From Bedellia somnulentella (Eukaryota > Arthropoda > Insecta > Lepidoptera > Bedelliidae), in contig OY755187.1 in NCBI GenBank assembly GCA_963576735.1, positions 8,432,001-8,496,000 on the forward strand: 64,000 nucleotides of DNA. The letters run 5' to 3'. The translations under genes were made by a program, and so were the position numbers. The number at the start of each line of letters is the position of its first letter. Position 1 is the first letter of the stretch. The notes under the pieces were generated by a model. That model worked only from the letters and a program-made list of their open reading frames with translations. It did no database searches and was not told the origin of the DNA. Positions 6,564 through 51,122 of this stretch are shown piece by piece.

Positions 6564-8447
6564 CTAAAAGCGGCATCTAATGCGAGGTGAGTTAGAGTCA
6601 GGAAGATCAGAAGCTGATTCTCCATCAACTGGAGGAAGGTGTGAACGACGAGGAGTAGGTATGGGAGTAGAGCTGTGTGGAATGACAGGAACAGGATCTA
6701 GATTGGAGATAGGAACAGGAGCTGTTGTATGGATTGGTCTTACAGAGATTGGTAAATTGAATTTAAATGTACGTAATATTATATAAATGATTATCATTAT
6801 TACTATTAAACATATGATCCAAATGAAAATAGAATAATGTGTCCCGTATTTTAAAATATGAGGTTTGTTTATGATTTTATTCAAAGATTTAATTACATTT
6901 TGATTATTTCTATTATAGTCTTGAATCTTATCAAGATTAGTAGCAACAAGTGAAATACGAGGTATACTGTTCTTTAACAAATACGTCTTATCAATATTAC
7001 AGCATGGTTCATTAATTAAATTAAAGTTGATTATAGGACGTTGAATTAAAATTTTATTTATAAAAGATTTTGGAATGAGTTTAGTATACTTACAATAGGC
7101 TTCACATTGACTTGGAAGTTCAAGTATACCTAAGCCTTGTATATTTCTATCTAAGGTTTCATTTATACAATTGATAGACAATTTTACAGGGTCGGATTGA
7201 ACAAATATCCATTTATTATTTATCAAAGGTTGCCATACATCTAATTCACCAAATAGTATTTTGTAATTACATTGTTTAGGCATGGTAGTTAAACTTTTGG
7301 ATAACATCTCACTTTCACAGATGGGATTATCATTAGAGGAGTATATAATCGAAGCTTCACAAACATAATACATTAAATTTATAGATTTACATTCTTTGTG
7401 AATGTCATCATAAACAGTATATACGGATTTATCTATTGATATGGCAACATATTTATTTGTAGGTATTATCGTTACAAATGAATCGGATTTTGATAAATTA
7501 TGAGGTACAGGTAAAGGAATGGCATGATACATATTATATTCTATAGAGTTAACAAGTAGAACCTTCAGTACAAAATTAATCTTATTATTATAATAGTAGC
7601 TTACTATATCAGATACATCAATTAATTTATTATTATTACCTAAATCTAGAACAATTGGTAAATATTTGGAATCAGGTAAATGTAAGTAATTATTAACTAA
7701 TTCGTAGTATAATTCTTTAGGACTCAACATAGCAGGGTAAAGCACATTGTTTTTGCTTGAAATAATACTATTAATTAAATCATTAATTTTAAAAGATAAT
7801 GATAACAGTGCGCTATCGAGAATGTTAAAAACATGATTAAACATAGTTCTTAAAACTAACTTATTCGAAACTAAACTTACATTATTCACATTATCCGTGA
7901 TAGAGTTAATAGCATTTCTTAATCTTAATTCATTTATTTTAATTTTATTCAAAGTATTGTTAAAATCATTTATGGAAGATTGAGTAACTAAAATATTTTC
8001 TTTAACTAGAGAGGCTAATTTAATTTCATCTCTCTGTAAGGATGATATAGCTTTATCGTATCGAATAGCATCATTTTCATCAAGTGTTCCAATTATATGT
8101 TTGAAAACAGTTCCAACACCACCAAACCAAGCTGAGCGTTTATCTCTATTGTTTGTTAAATAATTAATTGCGTCAAAGTCTCGGATTATATCATGGTATC
8201 TGGTAGTAAGGGGAGCTAATATATTATGACATTCAGAATCGTTAAAAGCATTATATGATTTACAAAGAAATCTAGTGGTACCTATTATTTCATTAATAGC
8301 ATTAATATGGGGTTGTAAATATCCAATATCAGAAGAGATTATAATATTAAGATGACCGTTTACTGTCTTCATGGGACCTAAGGGTTCAAAATATATTCCG
8401 GAACTATTATGAATGTATTTGACAGGATCTGGAAGGGCTTGAGTCAT
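6564..8447 (-). CDS. env: Errantivirus envelope glycoprotein (baculovirus F-like), uninterrupted
   Basis: This 627-residue frame is a class of fusion protein shared by insect errantiviruses and baculovirus F proteins, which act at the virion and cell membrane. A furin-type site RDKR (residues 101-104) is followed directly by a glycine-rich fusion-peptide-like segment (SAWFGGVG). A strong hydrophobic stretch at about 538-558 is the transmembrane anchor, and the last 65 residues form a proline-rich cytoplasmic tail. There are no internal stops. The first methionine is not followed by a signal peptide. A splice acceptor-like sequence (pyrimidine tract plus AG, - strand, about 8455-8480) lies just upstream, so the leader may come from a spliced 5' exon, as known for gypsy env. 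Function is untested. Confidence 0.88.
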   Translation of the reverse strand: MTQALPDPVKYIHNSSGIYFEPLGPMKTVNGHLNIIISSDIGYLQPHINAINEIIGTTRFLCKSYNAFNDSECHNILAPLTTRYHDIIRDFDAINYLTNNRDKRSAWFGGVGTVFKHIIGTLDENDAIRYDKAISSLQRDEIKLASLVKENILVTQSSINDFNNTLNKIKINELRLRNAINSITDNVNNVSLVSNKLVLRTMFNHVFNILDSALLSLSFKINDLINSIISSKNNVLYPAMLSPKELYYELVNNYLHLPDSKYLPIVLDLGNNNKLIDVSDIVSYYYNNKINFVLKVLLVNSIEYNMYHAIPLPVPHNLSKSDSFVTIIPTNKYVAISIDKSVYTVYDDIHKECKSINLMYYVCEASIIYSSNDNPICESEMLSKSLTTMPKQCNYKILFGELDVWQPLINNKWIFVQSDPVKLSINCINETLDRNIQGLGILELPSQCEAYCKYTKLIPKSFINKILIQRPIINFNLINEPCCNIDKTYLLKNSIPRISLVATNLDKIQDYNRNNQNVIKSLNKIINKPHILKYGTHYSIFIWIICLIVIMIIIYIILRTFKFNLPISVRPIHTTAPVPISNLDPVPVIPHSSTPIPTPRRSHLPPVDGESASDLPDSNSPRIRCRF

Positions 8448-8495
8448 GGATATGCTGAAATAAAATTAAATGAAAGAAATTTTAATAGAGTGAAA

Positions 8496-9235
8496 TTAGT
8501 TAGAATGAGAATGGGCTAGTTTGACTTCGTCATAATGATGTGTTACATGTCGTCTATTAATGAGAAGGGATAATGTGTTGTTACCAAGGATTTTTATAAT
8601 TTTGTATGGTCCTTTCCAAATGGGTGATAAAGATTTTCTTAGACGTAGGTGATTTTTAAGGTAGACACAATCTCCTGCTTTATATTGAACAGGTCTGGTC
8701 TTTCTATCATAATAGGTCTTAGATAGTTCTTTCGACTTTTGAATATTTTCTATAGCTTTGTTTCTAGAATATTCAAGACGCTGTTGAAGCACTTTAACAT
8801 AGTCAGGGTAAGTGACATCAGAAGTTTGGGTAAATAAGGGAATTGGGTATAAATGGTTTATGTCCATATAGAAGTTCATAAGGAGTATAATTAGTTGTAG
8901 AATGGACAGTTGTATTATAAGCTAACATTGCTGTGTAAATATAAATATGCCAATTATCTTGATTATCATTAATATACGATTTAAGATACTCTTTTAGAGT
9001 TGAATGAGATCGTTCAAGAGCACCTTGAGTCTGAGGATGATAAGGTGAGGACCATAATTGTTTGATTTTTAGAAATTGACAGGTTTTCTTAAAGAGATCT
9101 GCTGTAAAATTAGTTCCCTGATTGGTGAGGATCATTTTCGGGATACCGAACAATGAAATAAAGTGTATAAGACATTCTGAGGTTTCTTCAGCTGTTGTTG
9201 ACGAAATAGGGTAAGCGGTAGAAAATTTTGTTAAG
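8496..9235 (-). pseudogene. pol: Errantivirus B Pol, integrase C-terminal half
   Basis: Two overlapping frames (9153-8818 and 8879-8496) carry the end of the integrase core and its C-terminal domain. 'SPYHPQTQGALERSH' contains the catalytic glutamate, and 'WKGPYKIIKILGN' is the C-terminal beta-barrel block. The second catalytic aspartate position reads asparagine ('ILTNQGTNF'), which alone should abolish strand transfer. A frame change separates the two pieces near 8820-8880, and another separates them from the upstream pol frame near 9260. Confidence 0.85.
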
Positions 9236-11134
9236 TCATCTTGAAGGGTAAGGATAAAGCGAAGTTTTTTTTTTATTGGTTTCAGGAAGGGGACCTACTA
9301 TGTCAAGACTAATTCTTTCAAAAGGCTGAGTTGAAGTGGAAGTGATTTGCATGGGAGCTCGATTTATTCGGCGTAAAGCTTTATTGGTTTGGCAAGATTC
9401 ACAGTTCTTAACATAATTTTCAATATCATTCCTCATATGTTTCCAGTAAAATTGATCTTGGACTCTCTTTAGCATTCTATTTGCACCTAAATGACCAGTG
9501 ACAGGTATATCATGATTCTCTTTAAGGATTTTTGGGATTTCACTTAATGTGGGATAAATCAAGTTGTTATGATAAATATTAATTTCAATTTTGGTTTTGT
9601 TAAACACATATAAAAGCATGTTATATAATTTCAAAGGTAAATATTTGTCAAAAGGATTTTTAAAGTCAGTGATAGCAATTCGTAAGTCAGAAAGTTCGAG
9701 TTGTAGAATAAGTTCATTCCTTAGGTTTTTCAGTGATTTATATATATCATCATAAGAGCCTTGATCAAAGTGATGTACTTTAATAAATATAAGGTAAACA
9801 TTTTTATTTTGATACTTAATTTTAAGAGATGAATATAGCGTTCTTTCGCAGTTTATGATTTCATCTGTATTTTCGATATTTCCCAAAATTTGTTCGATAT
9901 AAGGATTAGCTTCATCAAGGTCAATTGAAACGGGAATAACTAAATTTTTACAATCACTTTCCAATATACTCTTGTTGTGTTCAATAATGGTCACATCAGT
10001 TTCAAAGTTTTTGCCATTAGTGTTTTTGAGAAAATCAGAATAAGAGTCGTCAGTAAAATCTATATCTACAAGAGGATCAATTGCTGTTTGGGTATTTGTA
10101 CTTTCAGCGCTAGAGTCGGTGAATGGAATTGGTGTCGGTAAGTCATTTACGCTAACAAATTCATTGTTTGTTGCAGGTAAACTTTCATTAGAGGGGTTTG
10201 GACTAGAAAGATTGAGATTTAATTGATCATCGACTAAGATTGGATTAACAGGGTGTCTCGATAGAGCATCAGCATTGCAATTAATTTTTCCTTTTTTATA
10301 TTCAATGTCATAGTCAAACTCTTCCAATTGTAAGCGCCATCTACCTAAACGAGAGCCTGGTTTTGAACAGTTGAAAAGCCATTTAAGTGGCTTGTGGTCA
10401 GTTATTATAGTAAAACGATGACCGAAAAAATAGGGTCTAAATTGTTGAGTGCCAAAGATAATGGCCAAGCATTCTTTTTCCGTTGTTGAATAATTGATTT
10501 CTGCTTTATTTAAAGTGCGAGATGCGAATGCTATAGGTCGATCTTGACCGATAGGACCTTGGGATAATATAGCAGAAATAGCAAACTGAGAAGCATCACA
10601 TGTGAGAAGAAAAGGTTTAGTAAAGTCGGGATAAATAAGGACTGGAGCAGAAACAAGTTTTTCCTTAAGTTTTTCAAAATTAAGCTGCTGTTCATTTTTC
10701 CATTCAAAGGCGACTCCTTTCTTGCAGAGGTTAGTAAGTGGTTTGGAAAATTTCGCAAATTCAGGGATGAATCTTCTATAATAGGACATTAAACCTAAGA
10801 AAGATTTTATATCTGTTTGAGTTTTTGGAATGGGATATTCTACCACTGCTTTAATTTTTTCTGGGTTTGGTTTGACTCCATTTTCATTTATTACGTGACC
10901 AAGGTATGCGACTTCTTTATGTAAGAATTCACATTTGTCCGGTTGCAGTTTAAGGTTAAATTCTCTGAGTCTAGCAAAAATAAGTGAAAGATTGTTTATA
11001 TGGGATGTTAAATCATGGCTATATATCACGATATCGTCCAAATATACGAAGCAACGAGAGCCTTGGAGACCGGCGAGACAAGAATTCATGAGGCGTTGAA
11101 AAGTGGCTGGAGCATTTTTGAGCCCAAAAGGCAT
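9236..11134 (-). pseudogene. pol: Errantivirus B Pol: RT palm, RNase H, integrase N-terminus
   Basis: A long open stretch starts at 'MPFGLKNAPATFQRLMN' and includes the RT catalytic box 'FVYLDDIVIYS' (about residues 33-40), an RNase H ('LTCDASQFAISAIL', 'TEKECLAIIF', 'TDHKPLKWLF', 'NADALSRHP'), a connecting acidic region, the integrase HHCC finger ('GHLGANRML' to 'CESCQTNK') and the first catalytic aspartate ('SLDIVGPLP'). Its start is not a true initiation site: the frame is cut from the upstream RT by a frame break near 11184. It ends in an A-run near 9260 where the frame is lost again. Confidence 0.88.
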
Positions 11135-12700
11135 TCTGTTGAATTGAAAATGACCCTGAGGTACCGAGAAAGCAGTTTTTCAGGATCTTCTACAGGGATT
11201 TGGTGAAAACCAGAGGCTAAATCTAATGTAGAGAAGTATTTGCTATGTCCGAGTTGATCTAATATTTCAGTTATCTGAGGAATTGGATAAACTTCACCTA
11301 TAGTTATATCGTTAAGTTTTCTGTAATCTATAACTACACGCCATTTCTTTTCTCCTGAGGCATCTAATTTCTTGGGTACAACCCATATGGGTGATGACCA
11401 AGGTGATTTGGAAGGTGCTATTATTTCGTCATCTAACATTTTATTTATTTGTTTCTCAACTTCCCTTTTATGGACCTCTGGAAATCGATAAGTTTTTGTA
11501 TGAATTGGTACTTCGGTGGTAGTCCTAATTTTATGAGTGAGAGCTGTTGTGTGTGTGAGTTTGTCATTTGGTAAATGGAAAATATCTGAATAAGTCGAAC
11601 ATAAGTCAATGAGGGATACCCTTTCTTCGGTATTAAGGTGATTTAATCTTAGAAGGTTAATTACATCATTAGTTCTTTTGGAAATACCATTTGTGGGTAA
11701 AGCATAGGAATTAGTAAGAACTGAATAATCAATAGGTTGAAGATGAAGTTTCAAATCGGAATTTATGGATATTGTTTCATTTGTAGTATTAGCAATTGTA
11801 ATATTAACTCTATTATTTGGTTTAACTTTAACTATGGAATTCGATACAAAGATTTGATCTGAAATGTGTTGATCGAAGACAATCCCTTCCTTTAATTCAG
11901 GGTTAGAAACAGAACATTCTATAACAAACTCAGATCGAGGGGGTATAGTATAAAGAGGTTCTGAGAAATTTAAATTTATTAAATTGTTGCCAATTTTTAG
12001 GACCTATTTACCATAATCTATTTGACACTCAAAACTATCTAGAAGATCATTACCAACTATGCCATCATGTGATAAACTTATATCTCCCACAACGTGAAAC
12101 TCGTATGTATCAGAGGAATTGGGAAAAATGGGCATTTTAAAATTCCCAAGTGTAGAAGTAACATTATCTCCGGAGTCAATACCTTTTAAAGTAATTATAT
12201 TTTTATTCAGCTTGGGTGGTTTAGATATCGAATTGAGTTTTATGAGGCTTACACATGAACCAGTGTGTATAAGGAATGAAAGGGGTCTATCTGATACAAC
12301 AGTTTGTATGATAATGTGGGGTAAATACCTCTTATCAGAGTTTTTTAAAATTTCGTATATCCTACTAGGTTTTCCTAGTGAGAGGGCATCTTTCGATGGG
12401 GACAAAGGGAATTCACAAGTTTTTTCAGAAGAGCAGAGATCAAGCGTTTGAGGATTCAGAGGGTTCAGTGGATTCAGAGGATTCAGTGGATTCAGAGGAT
12501 TCAGTGGATTCAGTGATGAGTCTTTTTTTGACATTGGAGTAGGTAAAATAAGATCGTTAGATGCAGAGGGAATGAGTCCTTTAGTATCAATCATTTTATC
12601 GAATTTGGGAGGACTATGATTCAGCGGATTCAGTGATGGATTATTAAATGTACTAAAGGACTTTGTTATACTTGAGGTACCATTTTTAACAATGTGGATT
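11086..12700 (-). pseudogene. pol: Errantivirus B Pol: protease and RT N-terminal half
   Basis: The frame is open from about 12700, overlapping the end of gag, as in retroelements that make Pol by frameshifting. It carries an aspartic-protease segment and the RT fingers ('IDYRKLNDITI', 'YFSTLDLASGFHQIPV'). Three defects are visible. The protease motif reads 'FLIHTGSCVSLI', with histidine where the catalytic aspartate belongs. One in-frame TAG lies at about 12004-12006. The frame is lost in an A-run near 11184. The leading part contains a stretch of LNP tripeptide repeats. Confidence 0.85.
12447..12514 (-). repeat. 9-bp coding minisatellite (LNP repeats)
   Basis: About seven tandem copies of a 9-bp unit (ggattcagt/ggattcaga on the + strand) encode repeated Leu-Asn-Pro in errantivirus B's Pol just before the protease. 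A related short stretch lies at 12619-12633. The unit length keeps the frame open whatever the copy number. Confidence 0.85.
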
Positions 12701-12731
12701 TTGTTTCCCGGGCGGTACTTCTCGGGAAAAC

Positions 12732-13769
12732 TTATTCGTTTAAATTACTGTCCGTTTGACTTTCCTCAGTGTCGTTATTCTCGCATTGATTAATTGTATA
12801 TGTTCTGCGAGGAGGGCTTTGACCTGGACGATTTTGGAACCCACTTGTTTGAAATCGGGAATTGTTGTACAGTCGTTTGCGACAGTTTTCGATAGAATGA
12901 CCAATTGCTTTGCAATATCTACATGTCATTTGGCTACTCGGTCCCGGGTTATTTTGATTGCCTCCATTGTAATAATTATTTGAGCGAGAAGGGTTAGAGA
13001 CAAAAGGACGATGATTATTGAAGTTGTTAGATGATCTTATATTAGAAAATGTATTGTTTGTTTGGGTTCGGGGGGTAGGAGATGGTCGCTTATTCTTAAT
13101 AGATTGTAATATTTTCTCTTCCGATATTGCAATATTTATAGCCTCATTTAAAGTTTTGGGAGATCGCGCTTGAACTATATTAGAAAGGTGGGGGGGGTAT
13201 AAACCCATCAGGAAATGATGGAGAGCTAACTCTTCCATTGCTGTGGTTTTACCGGGTATATCGCCCTTTCTTGATGAAGAAAGGACAACTTCGGTTAAAA
13301 GTTGGGATAAACAGGTTTCTATTTTTAAGGAAAATTGAGTAACGCTTTCACCATTTTCTTGAATCGTTTCTTGGAGTTCTGTTAACAAATGTGTATAGTG
13401 CTTTTTCTCAGCAAACTGATTCACTAAAAACTGTTTTAATTGTTCCCAATTAATGAATTCCTTAATGGAGCATGCTACTTCGGCCTTACCTTGCAGTTGG
13501 CTTAAAATATATTTAAATATAATAATTTTCTGGCTGTTTGATGCTAATTCATAAGCATTATTACAATTATTTATAAAAGCATTTAGGGTTTCACGAGACC
13601 CATCAAAAGGTTTAATAAATTTGAGTAAAACGCTCAACTCAATATCAAGTGTTGGTATAGGTTTTGATGATGCAGATGTTTTACCCTTACTAGGGGTTGG
13701 TGGAGGATCAATGGTCGAAGCTAAATCAGTTAGGCTTAAAGATGACATTTTTTTATCGGTTTCCGACAT
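12732..13769 (-). CDS. gag: Errantivirus B Gag, intact
   Basis: This 345-residue frame has the length and layout of insect gypsy Gag proteins: a helical capsid-like middle section and one CCHC zinc knuckle, C-x2-C-x4-H-x4-C ('CRYCKAIGHSIENC', residues 283-296), followed by a polar tail. The knuckle should bind genomic RNA for packaging. It is the first gene after the 5' leader, and pol overlaps its end in another frame. There are no internal stops. Confidence 0.88.
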   Translation of the reverse strand: MSETDKKMSSLSLTDLASTIDPPPTPSKGKTSASSKPIPTLDIELSVLLKFIKPFDGSRETLNAFINNCNNAYELASNSQKIIIFKYILSQLQGKAEVACSIKEFINWEQLKQFLVNQFAEKKHYTHLLTELQETIQENGESVTQFSLKIETCLSQLLTEVVLSSSRKGDIPGKTTAMEELALHHFLMGLYPPHLSNIVQARSPKTLNEAINIAISEEKILQSIKNKRPSPTPRTQTNNTFSNIRSSNNFNNHRPFVSNPSRSNNYYNGGNQNNPGPSSQMTCRYCKAIGHSIENCRKRLYNNSRFQTSGFQNRPGQSPPRRTYTINQCENNDTEESQTDSNLNE

Positions 13770-36360: not shown

Positions 36361-36828
36361 CTTCGTCCTCTCCTCTAATTGCTGTGCCCAACAGGGTCCA
36401 CAATGCTGTAACATAATTACATACTTACCATCTAAGAAAACCATTGTGGAACGCAATAAATCTATTGAGTGTTGAGTATTGAAATTAATACTTGTATGGG
36501 AACCACCCAGAAGAACGCATTCAAGCAGTGCGGACTTAAGCTCATTCTCATATTTGTTAATATGATGGCCAGTAATACCTAAAAATGAATCATTGGTACT
36601 TGAAGTCCAAATGTCAGCTGTAATGCATATTGACTCAACATTTCGAAGTTCGACCATTTTTAAAGCCCGCAAACTTTCATAACGGCTCATAATTATATAA
36701 AACGGAAATTCAGATTGAATCAGTTTTCTGCGCTTGGCACTGGACTCTCTCCATACATTCTTCACCTCAGCACGCTGACGTTGGGATTGGGGTAATTTTT
36801 TATAGAGTTTTTCTTCCTCGCAGCCCAA
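36358..36828 (-). pseudogene. hAT transposase fragment (catalytic-domain start)
   Basis: It includes 'ESICITADIWTSSTNDSFLGITGHHI' (split by me here to positions about 36530-36620), the hAT block containing the first catalytic aspartate in 'TADIWTS'. It ends after 'ALLECVLLGGSHTS', where homology should continue into the segment now found at 39120-39420. The order is therefore scrambled. Confidence 0.72.
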
Positions 36829-37903
36829 ACCTCAGTGGCCTGAGCCCCCGTTCCTACTGAAGTAGTCTTACGGGGTGGCAGGCAGTCTCATAAAGACACT
36901 GCCGCTAGAAAGGAGTTGTACTAGGTAAATTTGATAACAGTTACTCCTGTTCCTAATCCACAAAAGTACCTAGTCCAAATACCTAATCCACATAGTACTC
37001 CGTATTGAGTGAATGTGACGCAGTACTTTACTTACTGGGTACCACTGTGAATAGAATAGAATAAAATAGAAAAAATCTTTATTGCACATCAAACACAAAT
37101 TTACAAAAGTAATAATATGTTCAAACAGTTTACAGTGAGATACAATTGGCGGTCTTATCGCTAAAAGCGATCTCTTCCAGACAACCTTTAGAAGGTAAGA
37201 TCGATAAATTAATTATTTGGGTAGATGCACAAAACAAGGCCAAAAAAACATAATAAGATATTAAGCTTACTTAAAACTAACTTATTTAATTTAAATAACA
37301 ATATAAATATTAATCATACAAAATAATATAGATATTTAACGAACATGAACACATACATAATTAACTACATACTTTTATATATACAAGCAATACAAATACC
37401 TATTTATAATGTAAGTTCCCTAGTTAGTATAAGTTGAGTAAGGTCCCTATATCCAGTGAAGATCGCCGGTTAACGCTTGGTGCAGGCTGCTTCCAAACGG
37501 CGGCTCTTCTGGAAGTCGTTGGGGGAGGCTTATGTTCAGCATTGGACGTCCAATATATGATGATGATGAATCTTCCCTTCATACTTCCACAGGCTTAGGA
37601 CTGTCAGCTTAATTTTAGTTTCAAGCAGGCGTATTTAAAAGAGTTCAATTCATTTTATGTACATAGGTTTATTTTTTTTTTGTTAATTTTTTTTACTTAT
37701 TTATATTTTTTTTACTTCTTTGTATTTTTTTAGTTCAATTAATTTAAATGTACTTTTTTGGTTTCTTTTTGTCTTTTTTTAAAGTTACGTTTCCACAATT
37801 AAATTACAATGTATTTAACTTCTTTTTTAGTTTAGTTTTTACAGTATATATATTTATGTACAATGTATCACATGCCTAGCCTACCTAGCTACAACAAACT
37901 GCA
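36829..37903 (-). other. LINE 3' ends and AT-rich spacer
   Basis: 36829-37040 shows nothing recognisable. About 37050-37215 is the 3' UTR of a lepidopteran-type LINE on the - strand (complement of 'tttattgcac', AATAAAG signal, TATTC-like tail). About 37440-37575 is an RTE-type 3' end on the + strand ('ggcttatgttcagcattggacgtcc' region with an atgatgatg tail). 37576-37903 is T-rich. Confidence 0.6.
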
Positions 37904-39420
37904 CTACGTATTTTGTTGAAGAAACATCAACTGTTGCACTTTTCGAGTGCCTAGTCTTGTTCGTCTGTCATTTAGAAGCAGGCCGCAAGAAGAAAATAAT
38001 CTTTCGCAAGGAACACTCGTAGCCATTGCATTTAGTTTTGTGATAGCCAGAGCGTGTAGATGCGGATACACATCTTTCCTTTGTTTCATACATATACTCA
38101 CGGCTATATTTCCCTACAAAGGGTAGCCAGAACTAAGGAATCATAAATTCCTCAGCCACTTTTGGAAGTTGAATGGGTAAAAGATGGTAAAAATAAAGGT
38201 TTTTGGTGATGGGTCTCCAACCGCATCGCCCAAAAATCCAAAAAAAAACCCCTATACCCTTAGTCGCCTCTTACGCCACCCGTGGGTAGAAAAGGGTAGC
38301 GACATTCTAAGCCGGCACTACACGGCAAGTTCCTTTGTTTCCACCACTGTAATGGAGAGATTTTTTCATGAGGCAACACAATTTTGTCTTCTAAATATCT
38401 TTGCACCTCTATGATTGCCCTCGACGACGCAGTTCCTTTCGGTTGGATATTTTCATTCTCTGTGTGTTATGTTGCCATACCGAAGAGATCTGCACCTCCG
38501 CTGAACTAGAGGGACATTCTTGAGTAGAAGTAAACTCCTCTAGCTCCATTGAACCTTCTACGCTCTGGGGTGAATGCGAAAGGCTGTCTTCTTTGTGAAT
38601 TTGAGCAGTCACGAGCTGTATAACATTTTGTTTTGTATTATCCGCTACACTTGGATCCTCGAAGTACAGCTTGAATCTAGGATCCAGGAACGTACAAACC
38701 GTGAAAGTGCGGCTTTTATCCAAGTTAAAAAACCTAGTTTTTATAGCGCCTAATAAGTCTTGTTTCAATATTTGCGCAGTGTCGAGATATAAACTTGTAT
38801 CCAAATTTTCCAAAGAGGCTATAAGTCCCGTTGTGATAGGTAAAACAATACTTCCGGAAACATATTTTTGAGTGCTTACTTCTTTCGTCACTTCTTCGCA
38901 AGGTTTTAAAATTTCGCAGACATTTTCGCAGAGTTTCTAATCAATTTGTGATAACGTCATAGCACTGGCATTTAAATTAGATAACGAACTATTAATTTCT
39001 TCTTTTATTTCGAGAATCCTTTGCATCATGTAAAAGATGGAGTTCCATCTTGTACTAACACTTTGCAATGGTCTTTTAGGAATCTTTCCTGCCTGCTCCT
39101 GATATTTCTTCAATTTTTCTTAAGCTTTAGCGGATTTTTTGAAATAACTGACAATTGCTTTTATTTTGCTCTCTAATGCAGACACTTCCTCTGACTTCGA
39201 CATCGCTTCTTGCACGGCGAGATTGAGAGAATGGGCGTAACAGCCAAAATGCTTCCAGCCTAAATCCTTTTCTATGCCTTTTTTAATATTGGATCCATTA
39301 TCCGAAACTGCCAGCAGAATTTTGTTCGCCACTTGCCACTCCTCTGCCACTCGCAACAGCTCCGTTGCTAAATCCCTCCTAGCTTGATAAAAGAATGTTC
39401 GGATGAGTTAAGCTACCCGT
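37904..39420 (-). pseudogene. hAT transposase, middle and C-terminal part, split by a SINE
   Basis: Order on the - strand: 39356-39120 with 'AVSDNGSNIKKGIEKDLGW' and 'CYAHSLNLAVQ' (second catalytic aspartate region); 38891-38409 with 'VCTFLDPRFKLYF'; and 38087-37904 with 'MATSVPCERLFSSCG' and 'LLLNDRRTRL', the dimerisation block. Stops and frame changes occur between blocks, and a SINE-like element is inserted at 38088-38329. The N-terminal half is not in place and is probably represented by 36358-36828 and 35825-36090. Confidence 0.78.
38076..38341 (-). mobile_element. SINE-like retroposon copy with 12-bp target duplication
   Basis: Insert 38088-38329 is flanked by TTCCTTTGTTTC at 38076-38087 and 38330-38341. 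It is the same CATA-tailed family as 4317-4571 and lies inside the hAT transposase. Confidence 0.85.
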
Positions 39421-40628
39421 TAATGAGGCTAATTAATAAATCCTTTGAAGAAGGCATATTCCCAGCCCGGGTAGCATGAGTTGTCATCTGAGAAGTGAGA
39501 GCCATGTCAGAAAACATCTCAGTTACCCAACCTATGTCATTTTTGCGAGCATGAGCGTCAGTATGACAGACGGATGAGATCTGAGAGCCCTGTCACCGAA
39601 TCGATGAGCATTGTTGCCATCATTGGTCTGTGAATATTTTTTCTCTATTTTATTCGATCTTTTTGAACCAAAATAGTAGCTAAATCTGTCATATTTCATT
39701 CATTTTACGTCAAATATTGACATTTTGTAACCAAACAAAAACAACGTAAACAAACATAAATATTTAATTTCTCAATACAAGCTTCCAAATTTTCAATTTA
39801 AATCAAAAGTTTTAATATTACAAGTTTAGTTTGTAGGGAATGTCTGACTAAAATTCCTTACCATGATAGGGGAATCATAAAATATTAAGTAAGTAATTAA
39901 GTTTTATTATTCTATATATGTATTTTTTAACTAGAAAGTGAGCAGCATACTTTTAATGATTTGTGTTGTCTTTTGTTTGCAGATATAGCACAGTTATATA
40001 AGTGTTTGATGAGAAAATTGAAGAAATGCTGTGCAGCCTATGGCACATATTGCCTATAACATCTTAGTTCCATCCCGCCAGTCCATTCCCAGATTCCCAT
40101 TCGCCAGTTCCATCGCGCAGATGGGCATTATTTAACTTAACAACCTTCTCTACATTTCAATTTCAACAATATCCTAAATTCCCAAAAGCTAGTGAAGCTC
40201 TGATGTATGGAAATAGTCTTGTTGAATGCTCCTGTTTATTCAGAATTTGAGTATGCATCCATACTTAAAGAGCATTCTTATGACTGCAATGTGTATAAAC
40301 AAGCTGTAGTGTTTCTATAGGGAAAATATGATGTTAATAGAATAAAAATGTGAAGTACAGATGAGTCTGAGAACAGAAACTATGATGTTGAGCGGTTGTT
40401 TAAAAGTATTTATTCAATAAATAAAGTTAACTCCACAAAATGTGTTTTACTAGCAAATAAAGCCCATTCATAGGCAGCTTTTACTTTTACACTTGAGATG
40501 AGATTTCAGTAGTAAAATGTGCATGCATATATTCTCCTATAGATTATTTCCCATTGCAGTAGGCAGAGAATATTTATTGCCTCATCAATAAACTTACTCA
40601 TACTTACAACCATTATTCCCACTGTTGA
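39421..40628. other. AT-rich sequence, no gene recognised
   Basis: I see no transposase, RNA gene or repeat boundary. A repeated gagatctgag/ctgagaa vocabulary occurs at 39480-39610. No clear target duplication for the viral insertion that follows is visible. Confidence 0.4.
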
Positions 40629-42635
40629 ATAGCAATACCACACCCCACGGTCAGTTCACAATCCTCTAGTAAATCTGGATCATCGGTTAGCAATTACACC
40701 ACAGAAGACGATGAAGTGCTAGAAAGCGAAAAGGACCCTCCCATGACCGATTACAGATTTAAGATGATAAACCATATGCCTATGAAAGATATGTCAACAA
40801 AAAAAATTTGTAAAAGCTGGGGAATACCAGAGCTTTCTTACAACTGGGATTTAGTGGATCTAGAAAGCAAAAAGTTTGTCAGAGTCAGATATTCATATGA
40901 CACTGGAAGTGACGTTCATAAATTCCTTAGGGCAAGTGCTGAAATACCTATGAACTCCGACATGTTTATCATTAAAGCAGGGAACACTACTGGTAATTGG
41001 ATGAACAAGAACAAAAGAGCTTTTGGGGAGCAAAAAGTTACTAAATTTCTCCTAGAAAGAAAAATAGTCTTAGAAAACCACGGAATCAAAGATGGGTTGT
41101 ATTTAGCACCGGTAGAGGTCACTTCCTTGTTTAGCAGTTCTTGGTTAAAAGAGGCAATTGCAGAGTGGGAGGAGGACCTGTTGGCTGATCAGTTCGAAAA
41201 TTACACTGAATCCCAACTCTATAGACAAGAACAGCCCCCTAAGACAATAACACCATCAGATCTGTTGAAGTATTTATCACCGATATCAGAGGGAAGTCAC
41301 CCGTCGGAATGTATAAAATGGAAAGGAAAATTGCTCCCAGAACCATTTTGTGTAAATATCCATACTAGAGAGCATAGGGATGCTGATATTATAACTCTCA
41401 TGTTAACCAATTTTAAGGAAAATTTGGATAAAGGATATGAGGTTGAGCGGGTTAATATGAAAGATAATAGTGTATTAGTAGAAGAAATCTTAAGTGAGCT
41501 GATAGACATATGGAACGAGTCTGACCACAATACATTTTCATTTATGAACCGAGCATCTTCTCACCTCTGTGCAAACATTCGAAGTTCACTTGGAATAGGG
41601 AAGAAAGGACTAAAACATTCCCCTTTTGTAAGTGATATGAAGCAACCCAACTACAGTGAAAATGTCCCTCTTAAATATAGCCCATGGATCGAAGAAGTGT
41701 TCATATCAATGGGAGAGACAGATCAAATACCCATGGGCTACACACCATGTCCTGAGCTGCTTCCTTTAAGTCCAACTGATGACCATATACTGCCCATATT
41801 GTGTGAACCAGCAACAACAAGAGTGTTTAAGCAGATACTGACCAGTAATCTTGGGGTTCAAATGTCGAAGATGACAAACCTATATTCCAGATTAGGAGGG
41901 GCATACACATCAAAAGAGGTATACGGGAAAGAACTGTTGAAGAATGTGGCAATTTTCCCAATACTTGCTAGTTTATCTGAGGAAAAGGACAAGTCCTCTA
42001 TGGAAAGCGAGTCAGGCAGATTGAGACTTTGTTCTGGTCTTATCATAAGAGCCCCATATCATGCAAGGAGGCCTACAGATAGAATTATGGTAATTACTAT
42101 AGAACTAATGAAAGCAACAGAAAAAAGTCTTCTTTTTATCCAATACGTTAAGAACTGTTTATTGTACAAAACGAGGGAGTATGTAATAGTAATTCGACAG
42201 AATTCTTTTATGAAAGAAGATTCAACTTATAATGCATTCGTCACCAATTCTTTATTCACACCAGTTAACATGCTGGGGTGTTTAGCATTAGAGAATCCTA
42301 ATATAGCCAGAAACGAAAATATGGAGGATCTTATTAGTGAGACTCTAGAACGGGGGGAGAAATGGTTCTTAGATAGGGCTATTGAAGGAGTATTGTTTGC
42401 CATGATTGGTAACTCACGCGATGAGGGGTATTTTGCATGTCTCCGTAAGATGTTTCTGGTAATATTGACATGGAGGAAGGGAAAAGCTGCTGCTAGTCTC
42501 GACATAGAAACGTTCTGTAAAAAGGCAAATGAGTGCTTGATTGACAATCCGATTTCTATGTACTTTCATCGAACATTGCTCTTTGTTCTTTCAATTTATA
42601 AAAAAAGAGGGATTCGAATCAGGGGCAACGAGTGA
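40629..42635 (+). CDS. Endogenous orthomyxo-like virus PA polymerase subunit, open frame
   Basis: The frame is open from 40629 to the TGA at 42633-42635 with no stop. The first ATG in frame is at 40743; codon 40716 is GTG. About 630-640 residues compare with roughly 700 for a complete PA. I recognise the protein as PA-like from the order and wording of its C-terminal domain: 'RLCSGLIIRAPYHARRPTD' (about 42023-42080), 'AFVTNSLFTPVNMLGCLALE' (about 42235), 'RKMFLVILTWR' (about 42447) and 'KANECLIDNPISM' (about 42523). The likely relatives are arthropod quaranjavirus-type viruses. PA is the endonuclease-bearing subunit of the trimeric viral polymerase. The N-terminus appears truncated and I cannot place a full set of endonuclease residues. 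A 17-A run at 42678-42694 suggests insertion of a polyadenylated viral mRNA by LINE machinery. Whether it is expressed is unknown. Confidence 0.75.
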   Translation: MAIPHPTVSSQSSSKSGSSVSNYTTEDDEVLESEKDPPMTDYRFKMINHMPMKDMSTKKICKSWGIPELSYNWDLVDLESKKFVRVRYSYDTGSDVHKFLRASAEIPMNSDMFIIKAGNTTGNWMNKNKRAFGEQKVTKFLLERKIVLENHGIKDGLYLAPVEVTSLFSSSWLKEAIAEWEEDLLADQFENYTESQLYRQEQPPKTITPSDLLKYLSPISEGSHPSECIKWKGKLLPEPFCVNIHTREHRDADIITLMLTNFKENLDKGYEVERVNMKDNSVLVEEILSELIDIWNESDHNTFSFMNRASSHLCANIRSSLGIGKKGLKHSPFVSDMKQPNYSENVPLKYSPWIEEVFISMGETDQIPMGYTPCPELLPLSPTDDHILPILCEPATTRVFKQILTSNLGVQMSKMTNLYSRLGGAYTSKEVYGKELLKNVAIFPILASLSEEKDKSSMESESGRLRLCSGLIIRAPYHARRPTDRIMVITIELMKATEKSLLFIQYVKNCLLYKTREYVIVIRQNSFMKEDSTYNAFVTNSLFTPVNMLGCLALENPNIARNENMEDLISETLERGEKWFLDRAIEGVLFAMIGNSRDEGYFACLRKMFLVILTWRKGKAAASLDIETFCKKANECLIDNPISMYFHRTLLFVLSIYKKRGIRIRGNE

Positions 42636-42677
42636 TCAAATGTGTTTTTTATTTGGATGATTAAGTGATTTTTAGGA

Positions 42678-42694
42678 AAAAAAAAAAAAAAACA
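42678..42694 (+). other. Poly-A tract ending the viral insertion
   Basis: An uninterrupted A-run follows the PA-like stop codon by 42 bases. This is the expected 3' end of a retroposed mRNA. Confidence 0.7.
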
Positions 42695-43130
42695 AATGAA
42701 GGATAGCAGGCTGTTGTGCGCCTGCTGCTCGATCACGAAGTTGATCCACGTTGTAGGGACCTCTCGAAGATTGTGGTGGAGTAGACTAAATAAAAAGCCG
42801 ATTTGCTGCGACTAGGGTTTACTGCTTTTAAGTATAAAATAAATTATATAATATATTGACTTTAACAAATAGCTTCTCGTCTTCTCCGTGTCTTCTTGGT
42901 TGAAGTGATGAAATAAGGGGTTTTACAATATGTTATCCTAGTATTTATATAATTTTATTTGACATCTGTTTGTCTCTACTGTGAAAAAGGTGACGCGCCT
43001 CTGGCTTCTCCCATGTTTTCAGCCAGTGTCAGCGCGCTTCTGTTGAAACGCTTCAACACCCACCTATATGTATATCTCTTTTGTTACTTAATTTGTATCC
43101 ATCTGCTCTATTTGCCCTAAATAAAATAAT
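42695..43130. other. Non-coding sequence of unknown origin
   Basis: Mixed-composition sequence with AATAAA-type motifs but no gene. Parts (42800-43060) have an LTR-like look, but I find no second copy. Confidence 0.35.
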
Positions 43131-43394
43131 ATCCCACCAAAAACATTAAATGTAAAAAAATGCCAAGTCTCTCGATGCAGTTTTTCCATCTTAAAAAGTT
43201 TTGAGATCTCATAGAAGCCAAGTCCTATTCAAAATATTTCGTAGTTATAAATCAACATTTAGTAATTGTATCAATAGTTTTCTTTATATTATAATTATAG
43301 TGACTTGGCAATGAGCACAAGAAGAAACAAATAAAACGGCATACTCGTATTTGGAGGAGTTGAAAGTTACACACACCGCATGCGTAAACATTAA
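43131..43394 (-). repeat. Inverted copy of the module at 44838-45099
   Basis: This 264-bp segment is the near-exact reverse complement of 44838-45099 (from 'ttaatgtttacgcatgcgg' to 'tttttggtgggat'). A partial third copy in direct orientation is at about 43640-43840. Confidence 0.85.
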
Positions 43395-43640
43395 TATCAC
43401 AAAATTAATTTTCTTTTGGTTTATCCGTGTCGTCCCAACCGAATTTCGGCAACGGCAGTCAGTCTTAGTGCACTCTCGATTCATTTACTTTTATAAAGCG
43501 ATGGCCCGTAAGGTATTCTTAATTATTGTATTGGAGCATGTAGTCGGTAGTGACCATCATGATTCACACATAACAAATAATCTGATCACTGGTCTCGTCA
43601 GTAACATTTGCATATAATTCCAGGCAGCAAGCAGCTTTTA
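43395..43640. other. Spacer between repeat modules
   Basis: It contains 'ttatccgtgtcgtcccaacc' and short ORFs without homology I can name. No RNA gene is visible. Confidence 0.35.
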
Positions 43641-43869
43641 ATTTGTGCTCATTGCCAAGTCACTATAATTATAAATAAAGAAAACTATTGATACAATTAC
43701 TAAATGTTGATTTATAACTACGAAATATTTTGAATAGGACTTGGCTTCTATGAGATCTCAAAACTTTTTAAGATGGAAAAACTGCATCGAGAGACTTGGC
43801 ATTTTTTTACATTTAATGTTTTTGGTGGGATCTCATTTATTTTTTGTAATGCATTTCTTTCTTTTACTT

Positions 43870-44170
43870 TTAGGTGACCTGACAATTTCTTCTATCTCTT
43901 CTGTTTCTTCTCTGAGGCATCGTTACTTCTAAGGTAGACAAGTCTGGGCGATATATACTTCGGAGTCGATTATATTCAGCTATTGCTGTCTCCTGAGCTT
44001 TGATACTACTAAAATTCACATTTATTAAATGTAATCCACCCAAACTAGTCACTCTTGAAAGGGCCACGTATGCTTGTTTGACGACTGAAAACTCCCTTAC
44101 ATGCTGTATGACAACGAATGAAATAAACACGACCCATCTCCAGGAATGTTACCCGACGGTCATGACAATT
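43870..44170 (-). pseudogene. Helitron helicase C-terminus (copy a)
   Basis: The - strand frame gives 'VVKQAYVALSRVTSLGGLHL' and 'IAEYNRLRSIYRPDLSTLEV', the final motif region of the PIF1-like helicase domain of Helitron Rep/Hel proteins. Only the last 80-90 residues are present. Confidence 0.72.
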
Positions 44171-44177
44171 AATTAGG

Positions 44178-44837
44178 CAAAAGCCGAAGTTCACCTGCAA
44201 AGTTTGCTTGACCACACAGCACAAAGGCTAGTTAAAGTTCAACTCGAAGTAATAAATGGAGTATTGATTAAATATGGAAACACAAAACTCTACCTGAAGT
44301 CGAAGTGGGGATTTGACGGAAGCAGCAGTCAGTCTAAATATAAGCAGCAATTTATAGAAGATGCGGCCGTGTCAGATGCAGATATTTTACTCACATCACT
44401 GGTTCCATTACAGCGTGTGACGAAAACAAAGAAAAGTGAGACAATTCTTTGGCAGAACCCACGATCTTCCTCCACTCGATTCTGCCGCCCGATACGCTAC
44501 TAGATGCTGAAGGAAAGTCACACGGTCCTTAAAGAAGAAGACTACTACATCAACAGACAAAAAGCTGCTCTGAACCCTACGCAAATAGACATCGGCAATC
44601 GAATGGTAAACATTGAGCACGTCTTAATGGAGACAATGCTAGATGGAAAAGCTGCCAATGCACTCTCAGACAATAAATCTTCCCAGACTTGCAACATATG
44701 TAAGGCAATACCTTATGCTATAAACGATATTGATGCTGTCATACAGAGGCCATGCAACGAAGAATTGTATTCATATGGGTTGTCAACGTTGCACGCCCAT
44801 ATTCGGCTGTTCGAGTGTGTGCTCCACGTATCATATT
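44178..44837 (+). pseudogene. Transib transposase fragment (copy a)
   Basis: Two consecutive frames, separated by one TAG at 44501-44503, carry 'LKSKWGFDGSSSQSKYKQQF', 'ILWQNPRSSSTRFCRPI', 'LMETMLDGKAANALSDNKS', 'CNICKA' and 'YGLSTLHAHIRLFECVLHVSY'. Both aspartates of the triad are present. The fragment ends abruptly at 44837, where the repeat module begins. Confidence 0.78.
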
Positions 44838-48169: not shown

Positions 48170-49892
48170 AAGTCAGCTTTGCAAACAGTTGTCAATGCCT
48201 ATGTTAAGTATGAACCAGTCTGGTCTGACCACTTACCATTAGTTATTCAATGTGACATAAACATAATTAATACAAAAATATTGACATGTAATTTTAACGA
48301 ATTTAATAGGATAAAATGGGGTAATAGAGAAAGCGATCAAATTGACATTTACAGTAATCTTTGCAATGATGGTTTAAAAAGAATAGATTTTCCTCAAGAA
48401 TTTTCAAATTGTTGTGATAATAAATGTAATTATTTTAAACATAGACTTTATATTGATAAATTGTATAATAATATTATTGATGTTTTATGTAAGGCCGCAA
48501 CTGATAGTTTTGTTAGTAGGGTGAGAAAGAAAAAGCATGTTATAGGATGGAATAAACATGTAAGGGAAGCTCATGAGGTGGCTAGGGATAAATACAAAAT
48601 ATGGGTATTCAGTGGTAAGCATACAGAGGGCACTGCCTGGAATGAGATGCGAGAAAGTAGAAAAACGTTTAAGTCACGCGTCAAATGGTGTCAAAATAAT
48701 GAAGATCAAATTAAAATGGATATTCTCGCATCTCACCATACTCGGCAAGACTTTGGCCGAGGGTCTGGATGGACAGGAGATGAAGACCAGATTTACGGCT
48801 AAAGATGTTAAAATCTGCATTCAATCTATATCAAGAGGTAAGTCTCCTGGACATGACAGCCTCAGTGTCGAACATCTCAAGTATGCTGGTGTTCATCTGC
48901 CCCGTGTACTTGCGATGTTTTACTCTTTATGCCTGAGTTACTCCTACATACCCGAGGATATGATGAGGACAGTGGTAGTCCCTATTGTTAAAAGTAAAAA
49001 TGGAGATGTGAGCGACAAAAATAACTACAGACCGATCTCTTTAGCGACGATAATGGCTAAAGTACTCGACAGTTTGCTTAATAAAGAACTTGATAGATAT
49101 TTAAAAATACATGACAATCAGTTTGGATTCAAGGCTGGACTTTCAACTGAAACAGCAATCTTATGTCTTAAGCAAACTGTCAAGTACTATACTGGGCGTA
49201 ATACACCTATTTATGCTTGTTTTCTCGATTTGTCGAAAGCATTTGACCTGGTTCATTACGATGTTTTATGGGATAAACTGTCAAACATATGTATGTCAGA
49301 CGAAATTCTGGAAATATTTAAATATTGGTATTTGAACCAGGTAAATGTTGTTCGATGGTCGGATGGGGTGTCTGAACCATATACGTTGGAGTGCGGATTG
49401 AGACAGGGTGGGCTAACTTCTCCAAGGCTCTTCAACCTATATGTGAATGCGCTTATAGAGGAACTGAGCAGCACACACGTCGGATGCCACATTGATGACA
49501 TTTGTATGAACAATTTTAGTTACGCTGATGAAATGGTGCTGCTGAGTGCGTCGGTCTGTGGTTTGACAAAATTGATAAAAATATGTGAGAGCTATGCACT
49601 AAAACATGGTCTTGTATATAACGAGAAGAAGAGCGAATGCATGGTGTTTCAGGTCAAGGGCAGAGATTTAATAGAAATTCCGCAGATAAAACTAAATGGT
49701 AAAGTACTACAAAGAGTGTCTACATTTAAATATCTCGGTCATTGGGTCACCAGTGATCTGAAAGACGATGCAGACATCGAAAGAGAGCGAAGAGCGTTGT
49801 CTGTGAGGGCTAATATGCTTGCTCGCAGATTTGCCAGGTGTTCTAGAAACGCAAAGGTGACACTCTTCAAATCTTCTGAACTCAGTAAATAA
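48170..49892 (+). pseudogene. Non-LTR retrotransposon RT fragment (CR1/Jockey group)
   Basis: The first frame (to 48802) starts at the last motif of an AP-type endonuclease ('WSDHLPLVI') and crosses a linker. The second frame (to 49892) is an RT with 'GKSPGHDSLSVEHLKY', 'NYRPISLATIMAKVLD', 'FLDLSKAFDLVHYDVLW', 'GLRQGGLTSPRLFNLYVNAL', 'FSYADEMVLLSAS' and 'FKYLGHWVTSD'. The catalytic box reads YADE instead of YADD, and a frame change near 48740 separates the halves. The 3' end of the LINE is missing where hAT sequence resumes. Confidence 0.8.
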
Positions 49893-50643: not shown

Positions 50644-50734
50644 CTACAATAATTTAATGTTTTTTGGCATGAATTCCTCATGTGGGGATTATTACTCATA
50701 AATAAAAGATGTTATTAAAGGAAAGAAAAATTTC

Positions 50735-50807
50735 GACACTGGCGGGGTTCGAACCCGCGACCTTCGGGTATACGCCCCCGTCGCTCTGCCAACTGAGCTA
50801 CAGTGTC
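50735..50807 (-). tRNA. tRNA-like sequence, unit 1 (probably pseudo)
   Basis: On the - strand: 7-bp acceptor stem GACACTG/CAGTGTC, A box TAGCTCAGTTGGCAGAGCG, D stem GCTC/GAGC and T arm GCGGG-TTCGAAC-CCCGC. The anticodon arm is irregular (four pairs CGGG/CCCG and an 8-base loop, no normal T33), so I assign no isotype. Confidence 0.4.
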
Positions 50808-51049
50808 AGTTGGCATCCAGCGCGAAATTTCTCTATCCTTTGTTTCTTTTTTACACGTTCAAGTAGTGTTTGCGTTTCCTACCTCCGAATTTTAACTAAT
50901 TCGGACGGCCACTTGTCTACCTTTTCAGATAGAATGCAAATGTTGGAAACGCCTAACTATCACATAATTTAATGTTTTTTGACATGAATTCCTCATGTGG
51001 GGATTATTACTCATAAATAAAAGATGTTATTAAAGGAAAGAAAAATTTC

Positions 51050-51122
51050 GACACTGGCGGGGTTCGAACCCGCGACCTTCGGGTATACGCCCCCGTCGCT
51101 CTGCCAACTGAGCTACAGTGTC
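51050..51122 (-). tRNA. tRNA-like sequence, unit 2 (probably pseudo)
   Basis: An exact repeat of unit 1 shifted by 315 bases, with the same acceptor, D and T arms and the same irregular anticodon arm. Confidence 0.4.

What the first reader, a model, noticed from the sequence alone, without database searches (positions are those of the whole stretch)
40629..42694. Long uninterrupted orthomyxo-like PA polymerase frame with a poly-A tail in an insect genome
About 2 kb of open frame resembles the C-terminal two-thirds or more of an orthomyxovirus PA subunit, without any stop, in a window where most other old genes are broken. A 17-A run 42 bases after the stop points to LINE-mediated capture of a viral mRNA. 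Either it is a recent integration or the frame is under selection (antiviral co-option or piRNA source). Endogenous orthomyxo-like PA genes seem less often reported than glycoprotein or nucleoprotein ones; that comparison is from memory.
Basis: partly seen in the sequence, partly recalled or inferred. Interest (0 to 1): 0.92.

Follow-up and report, generated by a model that had tools for sequence, protein, structure and literature searches.

The report
Insect flu-like virus gene in moth
A moth or butterfly chromosome carries most of the PA polymerase gene of an influenza-like insect virus, copied in from the viral messenger RNA and still readable, most likely because it arrived recently rather than because the insect uses it.

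Summary
Window 40629-42635 (+) is one open frame of 668 codons. It aligns collinearly with PA of Lepidopteran orthomyxo-related virus OKIAV1731 (residues 125-751 of 753, 62% identity). A 41-nt 3' tail and 16 A follow; the viral N-terminus is absent. This is a 5'-truncated, polyadenylated retrocopy of a viral mRNA inside a 17.6-Mb contig of a lepidopteran genome. It is not an assembly join: contig C92 carries the same 3' junction and flanks, also with an open frame.

Recent integration explains the open frame: beyond roughly 1-3% neutral change it would probably have broken, and 0 of 32 invariant PA sites are hit. Selection, expression and piRNA output were not testable.

Elsewhere in the genome lie a divergent PA fused in frame to a copia gag (C31) and a PB1 array whose longest copies carry stops (C27). 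Related PA sequences occur in Scirpophaga and Heliothis protein sets. The window element is a new member of a known kind; the copia-PA chimera is the more surprising lead.

The parts
40629..42635 (+). Open frame, 668 codons plus TGA: 5'-truncated orthomyxo-like PA; the first in-frame ATG, at 40743, gives 630 aa (40743-42635)
   Evidence: the C92 copy has an ATG frame of the same 630 aa length
40637..40733 (+). Viral serine/acid-rich linker (frame residues about 3-35), aligned with the linker of OKIAV1731 PA; virus/host 5' junction at about 40629-40641. Bases 40637-40731 are replaced by 11 bp in the C92 copy
   Evidence: alignment; match start at 40635; C92 comparison; no upstream viral N-terminus
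40734..41228 (+). Remainder of the endonuclease-like region (right boundary approximate, chosen by me); the E-x-K of the metal site reads R-V-R, as in OKIAV1731
41229..42632 (+). PA C-terminal region (468 aa folded); predicted fold pLDDT 84.3, pTM 0.85, matches influenza PA chains
42636..42676 (+). 41-nt 3' untranslated region of the copied mRNA
42677..42692 (+). A16 tail (also A16 in the C92 copy)
42697..42708 (.). Candidate 3' copy of a target-site duplication (TGAAGGATAGCA); 5' candidate TGAATAGCA at 40626-40634; not significant
   Evidence: 7-14% of 8811 control places score as well
36444..43132 (.). Chromosomal block that carries the PA copy and recurs on contig C92 at 99.3-100% identity, apart from the 95-bp/11-bp difference

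Best explanation
A polyadenylated PA mRNA of an extinct or unsampled relative of Lepidopteran orthomyxo-related virus OKIAV1731 was reverse transcribed in the germ line of a moth or butterfly, most likely by a LINE reverse transcriptase primed at the A-tail. Synthesis stopped about 95 codons short of the viral start, giving a 5'-truncated retrocopy. A 6.7-kb block containing it was later duplicated, or exists as a second haplotype, on contig C92. The frame is open mainly because the insertion is young; the copy most likely evolves neutrally and makes no useful protein. Shown: PA identity, truncation, 3' A-tail, host context, second copy with the same flanks. Inferred: LINE agency, youth, neutrality.
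For: Collinear 62% match to viral PA 125-751 with 2 gap letters; grouped 100/100 with OKIAV1731 and a Scirpophaga protein, end branch 0.31 against 0.41 for the virus itself; A16 tail and 41-nt 3' UTR; the viral N-terminal 126 residues give no match at E<=1 in the window; among the 120 listed relatives of a LINE frame in the window, those that show a species name are moths or butterflies (placing the genera in Lepidoptera is my knowledge); inside a 17.56-Mb contig; second copy with matching flanks. Youth: stop-creating fraction 4-5%, so a neutral frame has only a 5% chance of staying open at 0.7-3.4% divergence, by the indel rate and kappa assumed; violations at viral-conserved sites 0 of 32, 1 of 55, 3 of 81, bounding neutral divergence near 4%; the two copies differ by 16 of 3349 bases in the outer left flank, 0 of 837 in the inner left flank and 5 of 2401 in the PA part plus 3' flank.
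Against: No significant target-site duplication, so a non-LINE route, such as end-joining of a cDNA, remains. The second copy also keeps its frame, which selection would predict too. No age from an orthologous empty site or a related species was obtainable. No nucleotide sequence of the parent virus was found (0 confirmed loci in 2 scans of viral contigs), so substitutions after integration could not be separated from viral ones; the age bounds treat all conserved-site hits as post-integration.
Confidence: 0.8

Rival explanations
1. The copy has been co-opted: a PA fragment lacking the first ~95 residues binds PB1 of infecting relatives and poisons their polymerase, and selection keeps it open.
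For: Frame open in both copies; PA-C fold predicted with confidence; no excess of hits at conserved sites; related PA-derived proteins in other lepidopteran protein sets. Precedent for co-option of a non-retroviral EVE in insects: PMC10636211 (abstract and outline seen).
Against: Youth alone explains the open frame. Of the differences between the two copies, two codons change the residue and two sites are silent, too few to show constraint. The flank and PA-part divergences between copies do not differ significantly (16/3349 against 5/2401, P 0.12). No expression data. The first ATG of the frame is not homologous to the viral start.
Confidence: 0.08
2. The locus works as a piRNA source against related orthomyxoviruses.
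For: Insertion in a TE-dense stretch. EVE-derived small RNAs directing RNAi are described for arthropods in the abstract of PMC10675110 (listing).
Against: TE frames in the window lie on both strands, so no one-directional cluster is evident; no small-RNA data are available. A piRNA source needs no open frame, so it does not explain the finding.
Confidence: 0.12
3. Assembly artefact: a viral cDNA or contaminant joined to host DNA.
For: None found.
Against: An RNA virus leaves no DNA to assemble without reverse transcription. C19 and C92 share the 3' junction, A16 and both flanks (837 bp at 100% upstream of 40637; 3' flank to 43132). The 5' junction itself differs between them (95 bp against 11 bp), but from the same host base 40636.
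Confidence: 0.01
4. Capture by an LTR retrotransposon through template switching rather than by a LINE.
For: The same genome holds such a case: copia gag fused to another PA on C31, followed by copia RNase H-like sequence.
Against: At the window locus no gag, LTR or pol sequence was found next to the PA: the 11 flanking frames between 36361 and 47377 given to Pfam hit no retroelement model, and the copy ends in A16.
Confidence: 0.08

Closest known systems
PA of Lepidopteran orthomyxo-related virus OKIAV1731 (Orthomyxoviridae, unclassified; P0001)
   Same: 62% identity over residues 125-751; same R-V-R in place of the endonuclease E-x-K
   Different: Window copy lacks about the first 95 residues, sits in a chromosome and ends in A16
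PA-derived hypothetical proteins of Scirpophaga incertulas (P0002) and Heliothis virescens (P0015)
   Same: Same clade, 57-58% identity to the window; annotated in host protein sets (P0002 on a 656-kb contig), so probably insertions too (inference)
   Different: P0002 and P0015 group together (91/99; 93/99 with P0016 and P0017), apart from the window copy; shorter and ending in non-PA sequence
Orthomyxovirus-like EVEs: Ixodes glycoprotein (PMC2987831), ixodid PB1 and NP (PMC10675110), Campodea PB1 (PMC6938034), firefly (PMC6191289, segment not seen)
   Same: Fragments of single orthomyxovirus transcripts in arthropod genomes (passages)
   Different: Different segments where named; the Campodea PB1 copies carry stops or frameshifts; the window copy is open over ~83% of PA
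Orthomyxoviridae-like sequences in Colorado potato beetle data (PMC9963324)
   Same: Stated to occur in genomic data; table names HA, nucleocapsid and PB2 (passages)
   Different: Whether the tabled contigs are genomic or transcriptomic was not visible in the passages; PA not named
LINE-made processed retrocopies (recalled)
   Same: 3' A-tail, 5' truncation
   Different: Source is a viral mRNA; target-site duplication not established

Membership tests
Orthomyxovirus PA polymerase subunit | Sequence match to PA over most of the length | tested here: met
   Pfam PF00603 above cut-off for the C-terminal piece; 62% to OKIAV1731 PA over 627 of 753 residues
Orthomyxovirus PA polymerase subunit | PA C-terminal fold | tested here: met
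   Model pLDDT 84.3; Foldseek best hit 8rn2_A E 7.6e-18, TMq 0.71, 14% identity
Orthomyxovirus PA polymerase subunit | Complete N-terminal endonuclease with its metal-site residues | tested here: not met
   N-terminal ~95 residues absent; E-x-K reads R-V-R, a loss already in OKIAV1731. It is a PA fragment. That these residues form the metal site is recalled knowledge
Non-retroviral endogenous viral element | Viral sequence covalently inside host chromosomal DNA | tested here: met
   Internal to a 17.56-Mb contig; same 3' junction and flanks on C92
Non-retroviral endogenous viral element | Absent at the orthologous place in a related species (dated insertion) | not testable with these tools
   No relatives of this genome are held
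LINE-mediated retrocopy | 3' poly-A tail | tested here: met
   A16 at 42677-42692
LINE-mediated retrocopy | 5' truncation | tested here: met
   Viral residues 1 to about 94 missing
LINE-mediated retrocopy | Target-site duplication | tested here: inconclusive
   Gapped TGA(AGG)ATAGCA pair; 7-14% of control places score as well
Domesticated (co-opted) viral gene | Frame kept open longer than neutral expectation | tested here: inconclusive
   Open, but youth suffices
Domesticated (co-opted) viral gene | Expression and purifying selection across species | not testable with these tools
   No RNA data or orthologues

The most novel reading that the evidence does not exclude
Lepidoptera repeatedly capture the PA segment of orthomyxoviruses, by LINE retrocopying (C19) and by copia gag-PA fusion (C31), and some of these open frames make truncated or fused PA proteins that interfere with infecting relatives: a recurrent PA-based antiviral co-option.
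Probability: 0.07. Interest if true: 0.85.

Novelty: new member of a known kind. Interest (0 to 1): 0.5.

Why it matters
It documents infection of a moth or butterfly germ line by a now-unsampled orthomyxovirus. It also shows PA, a segment that none of the EVE passages I read names, entering insect chromosomes as mRNA. The genome holds PA captured by two apparently different routes, plus PB1 copies with stops as a decay yardstick, so the question of co-option or chance becomes testable with small-RNA, RNA and population data from one species.

Tried and rejected
Target-site duplication: candidate not better than 7-14% of 8811 control places. Nucleotide relatives of the virus: 2 scans of viral contigs; 4 and 3 stretches matched a pattern, 0 confirmed. 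Viral N-terminus upstream of 40629: no match at E<=1 in the whole window; the near-field search gave only weak rows, best E 0.44. C92 as a plain allele of C19: not settled; the full-length C92 flank piece occurs twice, both times on C92, among 41 reported places (40 of 218 candidates were scored, so others could be missed), which favours a duplication. RNase H-like tail of C31 by Pfam and PDB: no family and only two weak unrelated chains; confirmed instead against a copia polyprotein in the same genome. PB2, NP and the PA family model did not complete for the genome, nor were DNA searches with window 43200-44800, window 38000-40600 and the C31 PA part; no absence is claimed from them. Papers: 10 searches used; OKIAV1731 is named in no held paper.

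Full report
WHAT IS THERE. Window 40629-42635 (+) is open from stop to stop for 668 codons and ends in TGA. Longest open stretches in 20 simulated sequences of the same size and dinucleotide make-up reach 118-184 aa. It is the second longest open stretch in the window, after a 1221-codon retrotransposon frame, so the surroundings are not uniformly decayed. Searched in three pieces, the C-terminal piece passes Pfam's cut-off for Flu_PA (26.6 bits against 23, E 2.2e-6), the N-terminal piece matches Flu_PA weakly (E 0.11), and the middle piece hits nothing. The C-terminal piece finds PA chains 8z85_A and 8p0b_A by sequence at 2e-4 and 3e-4; 8p0u, listed with the same sequence as 8p0b, is titled Thogoto virus polymerase.

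RELATIVES. A protein search with residues 364-668 gave 14 proteins among 1875 candidates. Twelve bear the name of a virus's PA, one is a Scirpophaga incertulas hypothetical protein (P0002), and one is unnamed (P0013). The closest is PA of Lepidopteran orthomyxo-related virus OKIAV1731: 62% over window residues 36-664 against viral residues 125-751 of 753, with 2 gap letters. A second search with the middle piece gave 3 of 191 candidates: a Heliothis virescens protein (P0015) and two unnamed ones (P0016, P0017). In a tree of 15 rows the window frame, OKIAV1731 and P0002 form one clade at 100/100. A tree of 14 rows with P0015, P0016 and P0017 added, and P0005 and P0012-P0014 left out, keeps the clade at 100/100 and places those three with P0002 at 93/99. 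The order among window, virus and that subclade is unresolved.

HOST. A LINE reverse transcriptase frame at 48573-49892 has 1644 relatives at E<=1e-20, of which the best 120 are listed; the listed rows that show a species name are moths or butterflies (Loxostege, Plutella, Helicoverpa, Maniola, Papilio and others), many rows showing no species. The assembly has 549 Mb in 486 contigs, and the window lies at 8.43-8.50 Mb of a 17.56-Mb contig. No species name is available.

HOW IT GOT THERE. The stop is followed by 41 nt and then A16 at 42677-42692. The match to OKIAV1731 PA starts at viral residue 95 and window base 40635, in a low-complexity linker where the alignment is loose, and the viral N-terminal 126 residues give no match at E<=1 in the window by BLAST. 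A 3' A-tail with 5' truncation is what target-primed reverse transcription of an mRNA by a LINE leaves (established knowledge). Katzourakis and Gifford likewise infer integration from mRNA because their RNA-virus EVEs span single transcripts (PMC2987831, passages). A gapped target-site duplication candidate scores no better than 7-14% of control places, so LINE agency is inferred.

SECOND COPY. Contig C92 (23,404 bp) carries the same block, window 36444-43132, at 99.3-100% identity. Within it window bases 40637-40731 are replaced by 11 bp, so the difference starts at the virus/host junction. The C92 copy keeps A16 and a 630-aa ATG frame, the length of the window frame from its first ATG at 40743. 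Over 2401 aligned bases there are 5 differences: two codons change (Y42F; K59E with two base changes) and two sites are silent. Three of the 5 lie in the first 74 bases past the break (P 0.0003). The left flank differs at 16 of 3349 bases in its outer part, plus two gaps, and at none of 837 in its inner part. On C92 the block is bracketed by a repeat pair of 1946 bp (99.7%) and 717 bp (100%), as in a tandem array cut by the contig end. The full-length bracket piece was found only on C92 (2 of 41 reported places; 40 of 218 candidates scored), which favours duplication over a simple allele.

WHY IT IS OPEN. Of all single-base changes, 4-5% would create a stop. Depending on the indel rate assumed (0 to 0.15 of substitutions) and on kappa 1 or 2, a neutral frame this long stays open with 5% probability at 0.7-3.4% divergence. 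At sites invariant among 13 other PA rows (12 viral, P0013 unnamed) the window violates 0 of 32; with one or two deviants allowed, 1 of 55 and 3 of 81. Those rows, each left out in turn, violate 0 of 32 to 8 of 40, 0 of 55 to 18 of 65, and 3 of 83 to 37 of 99. The conserved sites bound neutral change near 4%. Recent arrival therefore suffices; selection is neither shown nor excluded.

WHAT IT COULD DO. The C-terminal 468 residues fold confidently (pLDDT 84.3, pTM 0.85) as influenza PA (best Foldseek hit 8rn2_A, E 7.6e-18, TM 0.71 by query). Of ten viral PAs aligned, seven (P0006-P0012) have E-V-K at the endonuclease site; OKIAV1731 and the window have R-V-R, and P0003 and P0004 differ too. The loss is therefore viral and not decay after integration. 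With the first ~95 residues also missing, no cap-snatching activity is expected. A PB1-binding decoy is conceivable (inference) but untested.

ELSEWHERE IN THE GENOME. A search with OKIAV1731 PA gave three places: the window, C92, and C31:2544574-2546409 (-) at 31% identity inside a 791-codon open frame. That frame begins with copia gag (PF14223, 1e-23), then carries PA in frame (PF00603, 5.5e-7) from a methionine at the expected viral start. The endonuclease motifs are kept, and about the last 115 residues are missing by comparison with P0008. Four other contigs share 97-99% identity with its leader and gag; on the two fetched (96-97% over 700-850 bp) the match ends about 7-11 codons before the PA start. 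The sequence right after the PA matches the C-terminal end of a copia polyprotein at 42%, E 1e-30. No repeat of 60 bp or more straddles the frame within 16 kb, so no LTR pair was found. This looks like template switching by a copia reverse transcriptase (inference). At conserved sites it violates 2 of 24, 5 of 39 and 9 of 57, against 0 of 24, 1 of 39 and 3 of 57 for the window. PB1-like sequence occurs at 9 places, all on C27; eight lie in an array at 3.68-3.71 Mb, of which six carry stops and two shorter ones (340 aa) do not.

COMPARISON WITH WHAT IS KNOWN. Orthomyxovirus EVEs are known from ticks (glycoprotein; PB1 and NP), Campodea (broken PB1) and a firefly (segment not seen), and orthomyxo-like sequences are reported from potato-beetle data (passages). 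None of those passages names PA as an insertion, and a search for 'polymerase acidic' with 'endogenous viral elements' and 'arthropod' listed 7 papers, virus surveys or software by title; subscription papers are not held. The window element is therefore a new member of a known kind.

VERDICT. The capture of a viral mRNA is well supported; the LINE route and the youth are likely; co-option is unproven.

Noticed in passing
L008 1459-3834 (-), G000:C31:2544532-2546907: 791-codon open frame fusing a copia gag in frame to a divergent orthomyxo-like PA from about its start methionine, followed by copia RNase H-like sequence; the copia leader and gag are 97-99% identical on four other contigs.
   Followed up: partly
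G000:C27:3679297-3710614 (L022-L029, L032): Array of orthomyxo-like PB1 sequence: 8 matches in 31 kb, six with internal stops; two stretches about 4.2 kb apart are 99% identical over 2.5 kb.
   Followed up: partly
L004 2099 to L005 7404 (contig C92): The PA-bearing block sits in what looks like a tandem unit of about 9.25 kb; the second unit holds a 1393-bp insert at a short duplicated target, and the contig ends where a second PA block would begin.
   Followed up: partly
window 40637-40805: The 95-bp/11-bp difference from C92 starts at the virus/host junction, and 3 of 5 base differences cluster in the first 74 bp beyond it. Unexplained: repair scar, or conversion by another copy.
   Followed up: partly
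window 6564-13769 (-): Errantivirus-like element: RT/RNase H with integrase zinc finger, a 627-aa frame matching Baculovirus F protein (E 5.6e-39), and gag and protease matches below Pfam's cut-offs.
   Followed up: no
window 50734-51122 (-): Two tRNA-like genes 315 bp apart with equal scores; ARAGORN could not assign the amino acid. Surrounding sequence recurs at 99-100% on C31.
   Followed up: no
P0002 (Scirpophaga incertulas protein): Annotated host protein that joins PA-derived sequence to a PF13359 domain (a DDE transposase family, name recalled); may be a gene-model artefact.
   Followed up: no
P0001 and window residues 72-112: OKIAV1731 and the window copy have R-V-R where seven of ten aligned insect orthomyxo-like PAs have the endonuclease E-V-K; P0003 and P0004 have also changed there.
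   Followed up: no
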